The position numbers were made by a program, and so were the translations under genes. DNA of 20,854 nucleotides from Flavobacteriales bacterium (GTDB taxonomy: Bacteria; Bacteroidota; Bacteroidia; Flavobacteriales; PHOS-HE28). A model generated the notes under the pieces. That model did not search any database. It was not told the origin of the DNA and was given only the letters and a program-made list of their open reading frames with translations. How positions within the stretch are numbered: the stretch's first letter is position 1; every line of letters begins with the position of its first letter. This document shows, one piece after another, positions 1-9,759 of the stretch. The DNA lies in NCBI GenBank assembly GCA_008016945.1, contig SSGN01000214.1, forward strand, positions 1 through 20,854, given 5' to 3'.

Positions 1-402
1 GATGTTCAGCGGATCTTCCACAAGATGGAACCCCGTGACTTGAGCGCCGCAGTGAGGTTCTATTGTGGGAAGGAGCACGCGGGAGCCCATGATGCGTTGG
101 CCGATGTGGAAGCGACCGCCGACGTGTTGCTGGCCCAGCTCGAAAAATACCCGGAGGCCTTGCAGGGCGACGTGGGATTCCTTGGCGAATTCAGCGGCGA
201 CCGACAGCGCAGCCCGGATGCCGCAGGCAAGTTGAAATTCGATGAAAAGGGCACCATCTGCCTTTCCTTCGGGAAGTATGCGAACTGGCCCTTGGAGACC
301 ATCGGTCGCAACGACCCTGGCTACTTGCAATGGTTTATGACCAAGGCGGAATTGCCCGGTAGCACCCTCGCCATCATGCGCGACGTACTGGCCAGCGCGT
401 GA
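1..402 (+). CDS. DnaQ-like 3'-5' exonuclease, C-terminal part (cut by window start)
   Basis: The frame is open from base 1 to the TGA at 400-402, so the N-terminus lies outside the window. The visible part begins with an Ile-Phe-His-Lys-Met segment and runs into the motif HDALADVEAT. This is the H-x(4)-D exo III signature of DnaQ/DEDD exonucleases, the epsilon-type proofreading or repair nucleases that remove 3' nucleotides with two metal ions. After a linker there is a second small domain (FGKYANWPLETI... GYLQWF) that resembles the DUF3820 module often found behind DnaQ-type exonucleases in Bacteroidota. An internal ATG at 25 falls inside the exonuclease fold and is unlikely to be the true start. 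The next gene starts 60 bp downstream on the same strand. The family call is firm. Whether it is a replicative epsilon subunit or an accessory nuclease cannot be decided from this fragment. Confidence 0.85.
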   Translation, partial: DVQRIFHKMEPRDLSAAVRFYCGKEHAGAHDALADVEATADVLLAQLEKYPEALQGDVGFLGEFSGDRQRSPDAAGKLKFDEKGTICLSFGKYANWPLETIGRNDPGYLQWFMTKAELPGSTLAIMRDVLASA

Positions 403-1104: not shown

Positions 1105-1959
1105 ATGACCAAGATCGTCCACGTCGGCAACATCGCCTGCGGCTCCGACCAGCTCTTCCTCATCTCCGGTCCCTGTGTGATCGAGACCGAGGACGTGATG
1201 CTGCGCACCGCCGAGAAGCTCAAGGAGGTGAGCGAGCGCCTGAAGCTGCCCGTGATCTACAAGAGCAGCTTCACCAAGGACAACCGCAGCAGCGTGGACT
1301 TCTACCAGGGCCCCGGCCTGGACGAAGGCTTGAAGATCCTCGCCCGCATCAAGAAGGACTTCGGCTTCCCCATCCTCACGGATATCCACTACCCCAGCCA
1401 GGCCAAGCCCGCCGCCGAAGTGGTGGATGTGCTGCAGATCCCGGCCTACCTGGTGATGCAGACCACATTGGTCACCGAGGCCGCTAAAACCGGCGCCGTG
1501 ATCAACCTGAAACACGCGCAGTTCCTGGCGCCGGACAACATGATCAAGCCGGCCGAGAAGTGCGTGAGCGTTGGCAACGACAGGATTATCCTCACCGAGC
1601 GTGGCTACACCTTCGGCTACAACGACCTGATCGTGGACCCGCGCGCCTTCTACCACATGCGGAGGGCCGGCTATCCTGTGGTGTTCGACATCACGCACAG
1701 CATCCGCAAGTACGGCATCCCCAGCGCCGACCCGCGCGGTGGCAACCGCGACGTGATGCCCACCATCGCCCGGGCCGGTGTTGCCGCCGGTGTGGACGGT
1801 GTGTTCATCGAGACCCATCCCGACCCGAGCAAGGCCCTGTGCGACGCCGCCAGCCAACTCTGCGTGTACGACCTGGAGGAATTCATCAAGCCCCTGCTCG
1901 ATATCCACGCGGTGGAAATGAAGTACCGGCAAATCGCCGCAGAGCCGCAGAGTCGCTGA
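1105..1959 (+). CDS. kdsA: 3-deoxy-8-phosphooctulonate synthase (KdsA)-type enzyme, divergent substrate site
   Basis: This 284-residue TIM-barrel enzyme belongs to the family that condenses phosphoenolpyruvate with arabinose 5-phosphate to give Kdo-8-phosphate for lipopolysaccharide. Family motifs are FLISGPCVIE, KSSFTKDNRSS (the KdsA-type KANRSS loop rather than the KPRTS of DAHP synthases) and GPGLDEGLKIL. Cys24, His198, Glu236 and Asp247 align with the metal ligands of class II (metal-dependent) KdsA. The PEP-site lysine and arginine are kept (Lys136, Arg166). Two usually invariant stretches differ: RQTD reads MQTT (Met119, Thr121) and KKGQF/KKPQF reads KHAQF. The Arg lost at 119 corresponds to one I recall as contacting the arabinose 5-phosphate phosphate across the subunit interface. 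The last residues (AAEPQSR) are encoded by an inverted repeat that runs into the intergenic gap. The fold and KdsA-like chemistry are secure; the exact aldose substrate is open. Confidence 0.85.
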   Translation: MTKIVHVGNIACGSDQLFLISGPCVIETEDVMLRTAEKLKEVSERLKLPVIYKSSFTKDNRSSVDFYQGPGLDEGLKILARIKKDFGFPILTDIHYPSQAKPAAEVVDVLQIPAYLVMQTTLVTEAAKTGAVINLKHAQFLAPDNMIKPAEKCVSVGNDRIILTERGYTFGYNDLIVDPRAFYHMRRAGYPVVFDITHSIRKYGIPSADPRGGNRDVMPTIARAGVAAGVDGVFIETHPDPSKALCDAASQLCVYDLEEFIKPLLDIHAVEMKYRQIAAEPQSR

Positions 1960-2011
1960 GCAAACCCAAGAAGAACCGACCGCATCCTCCGCGCCTTTGC
2001 GCCTCTGCGGC
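1936..2011. repeat. Imperfect inverted repeat (CGCAGAG-type hairpin) between kdsA-like and transaldolase-CBS genes
   Basis: Arms 1936-1956 and 1991-2011 are 21 nt each and match at 18 of 21 positions as reverse complements. The repeated core is GCCGCAGAG / CTCTGCGGC, and the loop is 34 nt. The left arm codes for the last residues of the kdsA-like protein and carries the reading frame almost to its stop. The right arm ends 12 nt before the ATG at 2024. Repeats built from CGCAGAG words are, from memory, common as dispersed intergenic elements in environmental bacterial genomes. Copies elsewhere in this genome cannot be seen here. Confidence 0.7.
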
Positions 2012-2023
2012 AAACCAAACCCA

Positions 2024-3046
2024 ATGGAACTCTACCTCGACAGCGCCGACATCAAAGAGATCGACGAAGCCTTCAAGCTCGGCTTCCTCACCGGTCTCAC
2101 CACCACGCCCACCTTCATGCACCGCGGCGGCGTCACGGACATCGACAAGATGATCCTGGACCTGGCCAAGAAGGTGCCCATCCTGCAAGTGGAAGCCCTG
2201 GGCGAGACCGCCGAGGAAGTGGTGAAGGAGGCCAAGCGCCAGCTGAAGATGGGCTTGAAGAAGGACACCACCGTCTTCAAGATCCCCGTGAGCCTCGAAG
2301 GGCTGCGTGCATGCCGCATGCTGCGCAACGAGGGCATCATGGTGAACGTGCACCTGGTGTACACCCTGCAGCAGGCCTACATGGCCATGCAGGCCGGAGC
2401 CTCCTACGTGTGCCCGCTGGTGGGGCGCCTGCAGGACCAGGGCCACGACGCCCTCGCCCTCGTGGAGCAATGCGTGCGTGCGGTGAACTACTACGGCTAC
2501 GACACCAAGATCATGTTCAGCAGCGTGCGCACCGTGGAGCATGTGCGCAACGCCGTGGAGCTCGGCGTACACACCATCACCGTGCCCTGGAAGCTGATGA
2601 AGCAGCTTACCGACAACCACTTCACGGCCATCGGCACCAAGCAGTTCTACGTGGATACCCGCTTGATCACCATGAAGGTGAAGGACATCCTGACCCGCAA
2701 CAACCCCGTGGTGAAGGACAGCAAGACCGTGAGCGAAGCTTTGGTGGAGATGACCAAGCACGGCTTCGGCGCCGTAATGGTGGCGGATGCCAAGGGCAAG
2801 AACGTGGGCGTGTTCACCGATGGTGGCCTGCGCCGCGGGCTGGAGAAGGAGGGCAACAAGTTCCTCACCAAGAAGCTAAGCACCCTGAAGTTCAACGCAC
2901 CCTTCACCATTTCGCCGGAAGCCTTGCTGGACGAGGCTCAGAAGGCGTTCAAGGAACATAAGGTGGACACGTTGAGCGTGAGCGAGAACGGCAAGCAGCT
3001 CGGCATGCTCGACATCCAGGACCTGATCAAGGCGATCTCGGGGTAG
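2024..3046 (+). CDS. Transaldolase/fructose-6-phosphate aldolase-like domain fused to a KdsD-type CBS pair
   Basis: This 340-residue, two-part protein starts at ATG 2024; a TTG at 1997 lies inside the repeat. Residues 1-~213 are a TAL/FSA barrel: MELYLDSAD with Asp6, the Schiff-base lysine Lys86 in FKIPVSLEGL, and a GASYVCPLVGR segment. Residues ~214-340 are two CBS motifs (KVKDILTRNNPVV... VGVFTDGGLRR... VSENGKQLGMLDIQDLIKAI). These closely resemble the C-terminal half of arabinose-5-phosphate isomerase KdsD, including its FTDGDLRR signature. KdsD normally joins such CBS domains to a SIS isomerase domain, which is absent here. Active-site positions differ from ordinary small transaldolases: TTNPS reads TTTPT (Thr28 for Asn), NCTLVF reads NVHLVY (His110 for Thr), and SPF reads CPL. 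Its place between kdsA-like and kdsC-like genes suggests it supplies the aldose phosphate for the synthase. That role is inference. Confidence 0.85.
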   Translation: MELYLDSADIKEIDEAFKLGFLTGLTTTPTFMHRGGVTDIDKMILDLAKKVPILQVEALGETAEEVVKEAKRQLKMGLKKDTTVFKIPVSLEGLRACRMLRNEGIMVNVHLVYTLQQAYMAMQAGASYVCPLVGRLQDQGHDALALVEQCVRAVNYYGYDTKIMFSSVRTVEHVRNAVELGVHTITVPWKLMKQLTDNHFTAIGTKQFYVDTRLITMKVKDILTRNNPVVKDSKTVSEALVEMTKHGFGAVMVADAKGKNVGVFTDGGLRRGLEKEGNKFLTKKLSTLKFNAPFTISPEALLDEAQKAFKEHKVDTLSVSENGKQLGMLDIQDLIKAISG

Positions 3047-3067
3047 GCGGCGCACAACCCGGCGCAC

Positions 3068-3144
3068 GTTGCGTGTTGGCGTGTTACGTGTTGCGGGTTG
3101 GATCAAACCGCAACACGTAACGCGCAACCCTCACAACACGCAAC
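3068..3144. repeat. Nested inverted repeat (GTTGCGTGTTG-type hairpin) upstream of the HAD gene
   Basis: Two perfect arm pairs are nested: an outer 11-bp pair (3068-3078 with 3134-3144, GTTGCGTGTTG/CAACACGCAAC) and an inner 14-bp pair (3083-3096 with 3108-3121, GTTACGTGTTGCGG and its complement). The right side has extra unpaired bases. It would form a long stem covering almost the whole gap after the CBS fusion gene and ends 7 nt before the ATG at 3152. It is not followed by a T-run, so it does not look like a simple terminator. It shares no sequence words with the hairpin at 1936-2011. Confidence 0.75.
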
Positions 3145-3151
3145 GCATTCC

Positions 3152-3829
3152 ATGTCCCTCCTCCTTCCCTTCACCAGCCACGGCCTCCGCACCACCCTCT
3201 CGGAACCCGAACTCCAGGAACGGCTGGCCCGCATCAAAGCCGTGCTCTTCGATTGGGACGGCGTGTTCAACGATGGCTTCAAGGACGCGGAGGGCGGCAG
3301 CCCGTTCAGCGAGGTGGGCAGTATGGGCGTTAACCTGTTGCGGTTCGCGCTGTGGCTCCGGAACGGCGCCCTGCCCAAGGCGGCGGTGATCACCGGCCAG
3401 CACAACCCGTACGCGGAACGCTTCGCCCAGCGGGAGAAGCTGCACGGCCTGTACATGGGTTTTTCCAACAAGCCCGAGGCCTTCGATGCCTTCCTGAAGC
3501 AACACGACCTGCAGGCCGACGAGGTAGCGTTCTTCTTCGATGATGTGCTGGACCTGCCCGTGGCCGCGCGGTGTGGCCTTCGCGTGATGATCGGAAGCCC
3601 CGTGACCGCCTGGTTGGTGGGCAAGGCCATGGCCCGCGGAGAAGTGGACCTGGTGACCGGCAACAGCGGTGGCGCCAATGGACTTCGCGAAGCGACGGAC
3701 GTGATGATCGCGCTGCTGGGCAACGGCACCGAGGTGATCGCGCACCGCGCCGCGTACGCGGAGACCTACCAGCACTACCTGGAACAGCGTCAGCGGACGA
3801 TCCCGGAGGTGGTGCGGCACGCACGCTGA
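3152..3829 (+). CDS. KdsC-type HAD-family phosphatase
   Basis: This 225-residue protein starts at ATG 3152, just after a hairpin repeat. All four HAD motifs are visible: I, VLFDWDG (Asp34 nucleophile, Asp36 acid/base); II, VITG (Thr81); III, Lys107 in SNKPEAF; IV, FFDDVLDLPV (Asp130/131, Asp134). The pattern with no large cap, motif IV followed by LPVAARCGL, and a C-terminal NSGGANGLREATDVMI matches the tetrameric KdsC group, which removes phosphate from Kdo-8-phosphate; some relatives act on nonulosonate phosphates. It is longer than a typical KdsC (about 160-190 residues), with roughly 27 extra N-terminal and 30-35 extra C-terminal residues. As third gene after a KdsA-like synthase and an aldolase-CBS fusion it most likely dephosphorylates the synthase product. 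The last 40 bp overlap aat tail-to-tail. Confidence 0.85.
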   Translation: MSLLLPFTSHGLRTTLSEPELQERLARIKAVLFDWDGVFNDGFKDAEGGSPFSEVGSMGVNLLRFALWLRNGALPKAAVITGQHNPYAERFAQREKLHGLYMGFSNKPEAFDAFLKQHDLQADEVAFFFDDVLDLPVAARCGLRVMIGSPVTAWLVGKAMARGEVDLVTGNSGGANGLREATDVMIALLGNGTEVIAHRAAYAETYQHYLEQRQRTIPEVVRHAR

Positions 3830-9093: not shown

Positions 9094-9759
9094 ATGAAAT
9101 TCTTCATCGACACGGCCAGTCTGGCACAGATCAAAGAAGCCCAAGCACTGGGTGTACTCGACGGTGTGACCACCAACCCCAGCCTGATGGCCAAGGAGGG
9201 GATCAGTGGCACCGATGCCGTGATGAAACACTATGTGGACATCTGCAACATCGTGGACGGTGATGTGAGCGCAGAGGTAATCGCCACGGACTATGAGGGC
9301 ATGGTGCGCGAGGGCGAGAACCTGGCTGCCTTGCATCCACGGATCGTGGTGAAACTGCCCATGACAAAGGAAGGAGTGAAAGCGATCAAGCACTTCAGTT
9401 CCAAGGGCATAAAGACCAATTGCACCTTGGTGTTCAGCGCCGGTCAGGCCTTGTTGGCGGCCAAAGCGGGCGCCACCTATGTGTCGCCCTTCGTGGGCCG
9501 GTTGGATGATGTGAGCACCGATGGCGTAGGGTTGATCGACCAGATCCGCACCATTTACGACAACTACGGCTATGGCACGGAGATCCTGGCGGCGAGCATC
9601 CGGCATCCCATGCACATCATCCAATGCGCGGAGGTAGGCGCCGATGTGGCCACCTGCCCGCTGAGCGCCATCGTATCCCTCTTCGACCACCCGCTCACGA
9701 CCATTGGTCTGGAGAAATTCCTGGCCGACCACAAGAAGGCAGCTCAGCCCAAAGCCTGA
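9094..9759 (+). CDS. Small transaldolase / fructose-6-phosphate aldolase-like (TalC type)
   Basis: This 221-residue single-domain protein starts at ATG 9094; an in-frame TTG at 9073 lies in the promoter-like region. It has all canonical TalC/FSA motifs: FFIDTASL (active-site Asp), GVTTNPSLM with the conserved Asn, [10 protein letters not shown] with the Schiff-base Lys, [29 protein letters not shown], and ILAASIRHP. Small transaldolases move dihydroxyacetone units between sugar phosphates in the non-oxidative pentose phosphate pathway; FSA members make or split fructose 6-phosphate. The Phe of SPFVGR (Tyr in E. coli FSA) favours transaldolase activity. It serves as an in-window reference for how far the CBS-fused relative at 2024 has diverged. 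The next gene follows after 9 bp. Confidence 0.92.

What the first reader, a model, noticed from the sequence alone, without database searches (positions are those of the whole stretch)
1105..3829. Three-gene 3-deoxy-ulosonate cassette with an aldolase where KdsD is expected
Seen: a KdsA-type synthase, a TAL/FSA barrel with a KdsD-like CBS pair, and a KdsC-type HAD phosphatase lie in order on one strand. Known: in the Kdo pathway KdsD (SIS-CBS-CBS) makes arabinose 5-phosphate from ribulose 5-phosphate, KdsA condenses it with PEP and KdsC removes the phosphate. Inferred: the aldolase-CBS protein replaces KdsD. D-arabinose 5-phosphate has the same stereocentres as fructose 6-phosphate minus C1, so an FSA-like enzyme could in principle build it from glycolaldehyde and glyceraldehyde 3-phosphate. 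Alternatively the cassette makes a different 3-deoxy-ulosonic acid. I know of no published description of this gene set.
Basis: partly seen in the sequence, partly recalled or inferred. Interest (0 to 1): 0.85.

Follow-up and report, generated by a model that had tools for sequence, protein, structure and literature searches.

The report
Aldolase-CBS replacing KdsD in Kdo synthesis
Many Bacteroidota seem to make the sugar phosphate needed for the Kdo of their outer membrane with an aldolase-like enzyme instead of the usual isomerase KdsD, while keeping KdsD's control domain.

Summary
In detail: kdsA, a TAL/FSA barrel fused to a KdsD-like CBS pair, and a divergent KdsC-like phosphatase lie in order on one strand, and 56 of 80 related loci keep this order. 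In one order sample (128 genomes) 45 have TAL-CBS only, 60 SIS-type KdsD only, 3 both, 20 neither; all 104 with a detected kdsA have one or the other. In the order taken as the window's, TAL-CBS is in 40 of 45 genomes, KdsD in 0, KdsB in 45. Three loci carry kdnA-kdnB-kdsA-TALCBS-HAD-kdsB, pointing to Kdo (and Kdo8N) as product. Two genomes keep that kdsA and HAD, lack TAL-CBS and carry KdsD: a natural swap. Best reading: TAL-CBS supplies D-arabinose 5-phosphate in place of KdsD, probably under CMP-Kdo feedback. The reaction is open: the Schiff-base lysine and phosphate-side residues are kept, the FSA donor-pocket residues replaced. Nothing was tested biochemically; 69 of 198 genomes of another order have neither enzyme; no description was found in the papers searched.

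The parts
1105..1959 (+). kdsA, 3-deoxy-8-phosphooctulonate synthase of a distinct subfamily that travels with TAL-CBS
   Evidence: TIGR01362 332.7 bits, over cut-off; one side of a 100/100 branch in the KdsA tree of 84 rows; two KdsA types, 76 and 33 rows, set apart by score
2024..3046 (+). TAL/FSA barrel fused to a KdsD-like CBS pair; proposed D-arabinose 5-phosphate-forming enzyme replacing KdsD
   Evidence: Pfam TAL_FSA + CBS; TIGR00875 164.3, under its cut-off 245.95; model's best fold matches are transaldolases 3r8r, 1vpx
2024..2660 (+). TAL/FSA barrel with Schiff-base Lys86, Asp6, Arg135, Ser167, Arg169; T28, H110, C130, L132, E57 at the donor-pocket and water-site positions of FSA
   Evidence: alignment with E. 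coli FsaA; same residues in 120 of 120 listed homologues, C130 in 119 of 120
2660..3043 (+). CBS pair with TDGxLRR motif, as in KdsD
3152..3829 (+). KdsC-like HAD phosphatase (FDWDGVFNDG), proposed Kdo8P phosphatase
   Evidence: TIGR01670 43.3 bits, under cut-off 106.95; PDB 3mn1, 7t35

Best explanation
The three genes are the Kdo 8-phosphate module of these Bacteroidota. TAL-CBS makes D-arabinose 5-phosphate (A5P) in place of the SIS-type isomerase KdsD; the neighbouring KdsA condenses it with PEP to Kdo8P; the HAD removes the phosphate; KdsB, nearby or elsewhere, makes CMP-Kdo. TAL-CBS is a domain-level replacement: a KdsD-type CBS pair, likely a sensor of CMP-Kdo, sits on an unrelated catalytic barrel. 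Inferred chemistry: Lys86 forms a Schiff base with the carbon that corresponds to C1 of A5P, and the barrel makes or breaks the C2-C3 bond (glycolaldehyde unit + glyceraldehyde 3-phosphate) or moves the proton at C2, so that the true substrates are either glycolaldehyde + G3P or a pentose 5-phosphate (ribose or ribulose 5-phosphate). Shown: gene content, conservation, exclusion, residues. Inferred: A5P as product, feedback, the exact reaction.
For: Order of G004, taken as the window's: TAL-CBS 40 of 45 (seven only as pieces or cut-off copies), KdsD over cut-off 0 of 45, KdsB 45 of 45. Order of G003: 5 of 198 have TAL-CBS and none of these 5 has a KdsD match at 1e-20. One-strand set kdnA-kdnB-kdsA-TALCBS-HAD-kdsB in L063, L067, L078; kdsB beside kdsA and TAL-CBS in at least 6 of 48 genomes (picked by eye; distances). 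KdnA and KdnB homologues: proteins of L151 give 430 and 429 bits to 5k8b and 5k8c. Swap: G189 and G217 have window-type kdsA and HAD with kdnA/kdnB and kdsB, no TAL-CBS, and KdsD elsewhere. CBS pair closest to KdsD's. A separate ordinary FSA/transaldolase lies at 9094-9759. FsaA can make A5P (PMC9947464 passages).
Against: No biochemical test. 69 of 198 genomes of one order have neither enzyme (kdsA not tested there), and 12 of 118 genomes with KdsB in the 128 sample have neither. 2 of 15 and 3 of 128 genomes hold both. Completeness of the searched genomes is not told, so single absences may be gaps, and the sample centres were chosen for having TAL-CBS. TAL-CBS is within 3 kb of kdsA in only 25 of 48 genomes of the 128 sample. 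Free glycolaldehyde has no known bulk source (own knowledge). KdsA subtype is tied to TAL-CBS, which would also fit another aldose, though the swap genomes argue against it. The window's own genome could not be searched.
Confidence: 0.8

Rival explanations
1. A version of the best explanation: TAL-CBS is an A5P aldolase that joins glycolaldehyde and glyceraldehyde 3-phosphate, as FsaA can.
For: Lys86, Asp6 and the phosphate-side residues are kept; FsaA does this reaction and is said to give no ribose 5-phosphate (PMC9947464 passages). The donor-pocket positions Asn28, Thr109 and Ala129 (so named in PMC13259622 passages) are all changed here, as a donor without the hydroxymethyl of dihydroxyacetone might ask.
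Against: No known flux source of free glycolaldehyde large enough for LPS (own knowledge); the catalytic-water residues Gln59/Thr109/Tyr131 are Glu/His/Leu here.
Confidence: 0.35
2. Another version of the best explanation: TAL-CBS interconverts a pentose 5-phosphate and A5P (ribose 5-P 2-epimerase through an enamine or retro-aldol/aldol, or ribulose 5-P isomerase) without releasing glycolaldehyde.
For: Substrates are abundant (own knowledge); invariant His110 and Glu57 could serve as acid/base; the paper says that TalB F178Y forms ribose 5-P as by-product, so the scaffold can handle both epimers; epimerisation by an aldolase fold is precedented in AraD (recalled).
Against: No isomerase or epimerase is known to me in the TAL/FSA family; residue roles are by alignment only.
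Confidence: 0.4
3. The cassette makes another 3-deoxy-ulosonic acid from another aldose phosphate.
For: The KdsA subfamily lies across a long branch (1.33) with changed positions, some in the loop at 201-215; the HAD is under the KdsC cut-off.
Against: kdsB in 45 of 45 genomes of the order of G004; Kdo 8-oxidase and Kdo8N transaminase homologues directly before kdsA in 9 of 80 loci; the same KdsA type goes with KdsD in G189 and G217.
Confidence: 0.08
4. TAL-CBS is an accessory or regulatory protein and A5P comes from a third, unseen enzyme.
For: Active-site water residues are altered; 69 of 198 genomes in one order have neither enzyme, so a third source may exist.
Against: Lys86 and phosphate-side residues are in 120 of 120 listed homologues; exclusion with KdsD.
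Confidence: 0.1

Closest known systems
KdsD / KpsF / GutQ arabinose 5-phosphate isomerase (SIS-CBS-CBS, TIGR00393)
   Same: same CBS pair type, same pathway slot, nearly exclusive distribution
   Different: catalytic SIS domain absent, a TAL/FSA barrel in its place; only the CBS part matches (58.9 bits, cut-off 203.7)
Fructose-6-phosphate aldolase / TalC (TIGR00875; E. coli FsaA 1l6w)
   Same: barrel fold, Schiff-base Lys, Asp6, phosphate-side residues; FsaA can make A5P in vitro
   Different: 27-30% identity to FsaA in the barrel, under the equivalog cut-off, N28T/Q59E/T109H/A129C/Y131L, CBS pair added, in the Kdo gene set
Kdo8N genes KdnA and KdnB (5k8b, 5k8c; Shewanella, recalled)
   Same: kdnA and kdnB homologues directly before kdsA of this cassette in 9 of 80 loci
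   Different: A5P source there recalled as KdsD; no kdnA or kdnB was recognised among the window's genes that I examined
Single-domain SIS arabinose 5-phosphate isomerase of Bacteroides (recalled)
   Same: another departure from SIS-CBS-CBS KdsD in the same phylum
   Different: keeps SIS and loses CBS; here CBS is kept and SIS absent

Membership tests
KdsA (TIGR01362) | curated score cut-off 314 | tested here: met
   332.7 bits
KdsD/KpsF (TIGR00393) | SIS catalytic domain and score over 203.7 | tested here: not met
   58.9 bits, CBS part only, residues 215-329
KdsD/KpsF (TIGR00393) | CBS pair of KdsD type | tested here: met
   KdsD CBS structures rank 1, 2 and 4 of 41 with the family's CBS profile
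KdsD/KpsF (TIGR00393) | makes A5P | not testable with these tools
   inferred from gene context only
Fructose-6-phosphate aldolase (TIGR00875) | equivalog cut-off 245.95 | tested here: not met
   164.3 bits
TAL_FSA superfamily (PF00923) | gathering score and Schiff-base lysine | tested here: met
   130.2 bits, cut-off 27; Lys86 in 120 of 120 listed homologues
Fructose-6-phosphate aldolase (TIGR00875) | Gln59-Thr109-Tyr131 water site and Asn28/Ala129 donor pocket | tested here: not met
   E57, H110, L132, T28, C130; roles from PMC13259622 passages
KdsC (TIGR01670) | cut-off 106.95 | tested here: not met
   43.3 bits
KdsC (TIGR01670) | Kdo8P phosphatase activity | not testable with these tools
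   indirect: KdsC over cut-off in 7 of 45 TAL-CBS-only against 53 of 60 KdsD-only genomes

The most novel reading that the evidence does not exclude
An aldolase-fold enzyme working through a Schiff base, not an isomerase of the SIS fold, makes the arabinose 5-phosphate of Kdo in many Bacteroidota: from glycolaldehyde and glyceraldehyde 3-phosphate, or from ribose 5-phosphate as a 2-epimerase through the enamine or retro-aldol/aldol. It is probably held back by CMP-Kdo through a CBS pair shared with KdsD.
Probability: 0.5. Interest if true: 0.88.

Novelty: new variant of a known kind. Interest (0 to 1): 0.78.

Why it matters
Kdo is a nearly universal part of Gram-negative LPS, and its A5P is held to come from KdsD or SIS-only relatives (own knowledge). 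A replacement at the level of one domain, with the regulatory pair shared, would explain how Bacteroidota without kdsD still make Kdo, would add a new activity to the transaldolase/FSA family, and would correct the names 'transaldolase' and 'fructose-6-phosphate aldolase' given to some of these proteins (names seen). It is directly testable with three proteins and a laboratory E. coli strain.

Tried and rejected
Chance neighbours: rejected, 56 of 80 loci keep the order. Housekeeping transaldolase: rejected as the main role, since the window has an ordinary FSA/transaldolase at 9094-9759 over the TIGR00875 cut-off. Window-type KdsA needing TAL-CBS: rejected by G189 and G217, which pair it with KdsD. 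A third such case, G277, has its kdsA on a 10-kb contig and was not relied on. Second KdsD/KdsA sets: in G226 and G253 they lie among what look like polysaccharide-export and glycosyltransferase genes (my reading of ORF starts). In G001, G002, G189 and G217 KdsD lies beside a recQ-like gene (my reading).

Literature: (listings with starts of abstracts; one found none) showed no paper on a transaldolase-CBS protein in Kdo synthesis; the library lacks most subscription journals and all preprints. Passages were seen of PMC9947464, PMC13259622 and PMC7767278 (the last was not used); no paper was read whole. One search, for transaldolase residue roles, led nowhere. mostly returned kinetoplast DNA.

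Not done: a survey of TAL-CBS outside Bacteroidota; a kdsA search in the orders of G003 and G004; waaA; structures of KdsA or HAD. KdsA type was read from sequence only for the loci held; other genomes of the 128 are known by TIGR01362 score alone. That 4o9k is a complex with CMP-Kdo is recalled; the tool gave only the name 'Arabinose 5-phosphate isomerase'.
Full report
What is there. The window (20,854 bases) holds, in order on the + strand, kdsA (1105-1959), a 340-residue TAL/FSA-CBS protein (ATG 2024, end 3046) and a KdsC-like HAD phosphatase (ATG 3152, end 3829). KdsA passes its curated cut-off; the HAD does not (TIGR01670 43.3 of 106.95), though its PDB hits are YrbI/KdsC-type phosphatases such as 3mn1 and 7t35. 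The middle protein passes Pfam's TAL_FSA and CBS, but not the FSA equivalog (164.3 of 245.95), and matches KpsF/KdsD over its CBS part only. A second, ordinary FSA/transaldolase, over the FSA cut-off, lies at 9094-9759.

Conservation. The protein search gave 3803 proteins at E 0.001 (all TAL/FSA kinds together); the 120 listed all carry TAL_FSA + CBS. In genome contigs 176 places encode a relative and the best 80 were kept, L001-L080; their titles name Bacteroidota groups, except two 'bacterium' (L035, L058) and one Saccharibacteria (L052). Of these 80, 58 have a kdsA that starts within 2.2 kb upstream, 67 the HAD within 3.5 kb downstream, 56 both, on the same strand; six of the missing flanks lie near a contig end. 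In the order sample of 128 genomes TAL-CBS is within 3 kb of kdsA in 25 of 48 and of kdsB in at least 6 of 48 (kdsB rows picked by eye), so the set is often broken up, by gene order or by assembly.

Exclusion with KdsD. In that sample (order of G001, the genome of L050, Chryseolinea serpens) TAL-CBS was found in 48 and SIS-type KdsD over the cut-off in 63 of 128 (the KdsD family also rang in 4 of 14 control genomes, over the cut-off in 3). KdsA was found in 104 of 128, and all of these have one or the other: 43, 58, 3, 0. TAL-CBS genomes without detected kdsA: G239, G267; KdsD genomes without: G173, G264. KdsB is in 118 of 128; 12 of these 118 have neither TAL-CBS nor KdsD, nor a detected kdsA. 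Completeness of these genomes is not told. All three 'both' genomes have two kdsA, one of each type. In the order of G004 (L005; its TAL-CBS is 96% identical to the window's, so I take this as the window's order): TAL-CBS in 40 of 45 (seven only as pieces or cut-off copies), KdsD over the cut-off in 0, KdsB in 45. Of 15 TAL-CBS genomes searched down to E 0.001, two (G001, G002) have KdsD; in the other 13 the best match is the CBS part of a 336-385-residue frame, taken as TAL-CBS, and matches to the SIS part reach 22.5 bits at most. In the order of G003, 5 of 198 have TAL-CBS, 110 KdsD over the cut-off (124 at 1e-20, among them SIS-only forms), no overlap. Against a simple picture: 69 of those 198 have neither. 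An even phylum sample, its centre G001 included, has TAL-CBS in 3 of 148, so the family is patchy.

What the product is. In L063, L067 and L078 one strand carries kdnA, kdnB, kdsA, TAL-CBS, HAD, kdsB; kdnA-kdnB stand directly before kdsA in nine of 80 loci (L049, L050, L051, L063, L066, L067, L073, L077, L078). The kdnA and kdnB homologues were identified on L151 by 430 bits to 5k8b (8-amino-3,8-dideoxy-alpha-D-manno-octulosonate transaminase) and 429 bits to 5k8c (3-deoxy-alpha-D-manno-octulosonate 8-oxidase) and found elsewhere by tblastn with these. Such a set makes Kdo first and then Kdo8N, so the aldose for KdsA should be A5P (pathway knowledge).

The natural swap. KdsA falls into two types: window type (76 rows) and the other (33 rows), after 18 near-copy loci of 127 hits were left out. 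In a tree of 84 of these rows a 100/100 branch of 1.33 parts them. Among the KdsA read from sequence, three come from genomes with KdsD and no TAL-CBS and are of window type: G189, G217 and G277. In G189 (7.03-Mb contig) kdnA, kdnB, kdsA, HAD and kdsB stand in a row, the set above without TAL-CBS; in G217 the same with a 3.5-kb frame of the other strand before kdsB. Their KdsD lies elsewhere, beside a recQ-like gene (my reading of the ORF). They sit inside the window-type side with five TAL-CBS rows (95/96). So the same KdsA and HAD types go with A5P from KdsD. Canonical KdsC is also split: over the cut-off in 7 of 45 TAL-CBS-only, 53 of 60 KdsD-only and 3 of 3 'both' genomes.

Active site. 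Against E. coli FsaA the barrel keeps Asp6, Lys86 (K85), Arg135 (R134), Ser167 (S166) and has Arg169 for K168; it has T28 for N28, E57 for Q59, H110 for T109, C130 for A129 and L132 for Y131. These hold in 120 of 120 listed homologues (C130 in 119). PMC13259622 (passages) calls N28/T109/A129 donor-pocket positions and Q59-T109-Y131 the catalytic-water site. So the phosphate side is kept and the donor side rebuilt, as expected if the donor lacks the hydroxymethyl of dihydroxyacetone; A5P is fructose 6-phosphate without C1. FsaA joins glycolaldehyde and G3P to A5P within an in vitro pathway (PMC9947464, passages). The same text says that TalB F178Y forms ribose 5-phosphate as by-product, which leaves room for ribose 5-P to A5P epimerisation on this scaffold. 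The model (mean pLDDT 85.8, pTM 0.57) matches transaldolases best.

Regulation. A profile of the family's CBS part ranks KdsD CBS pairs 1, 2 and 4 of 41 PDB hits and shares the TDG-x-[L/I/V]-RR motif with ten KdsD. That KdsD's CBS pair binds CMP-Kdo is recalled. Feedback on TAL-CBS is inferred.

Verdict. Which reaction it uses is undecided. It is a new variant of a known pathway; within the papers searched I found no description.

Noticed in passing
window 3079-3125 and about 1940-2016: Hairpin-forming repeats lie between the three genes: 22-nt arms, 91% complementary at 3079-3125, and a cgcagag/ctctgcg pair before TAL-CBS (the latter by eye).
   Followed up: partly
window 25-402 and 433-1074: An ExoX-like frame and a fumarylacetoacetate-hydrolase family gene upstream of kdsA are both kept in 24 of the 30 closest loci (L001-L029, L037); the other six begin near a contig end.
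   Followed up: no
order of G003: 69 of 198 genomes have neither TAL-CBS nor KdsD at 1e-20; they lack Kdo, have gaps, or have a third A5P source.
   Followed up: no
L161 4195-4788, L162 5059-5670: A roughly 200-residue frame starting with an ATPase/zeta-like P-loop (by eye) stands between kdsA and TAL-CBS in two closely similar loci.
   Followed up: no
L154 and L157: Second KdsD and KdsA copies of G253 and G226 stand among what look like capsule or O-antigen export genes (by eye); L157 also holds a KdsC-type phosphatase.
   Followed up: partly
KdsA alignment: Window-type KdsA differs from the other type at places at least 90% conserved in each, among them D59A, Y96E, M118R, H137K and R201Q, and in the loop at 201-215.
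   Followed up: partly
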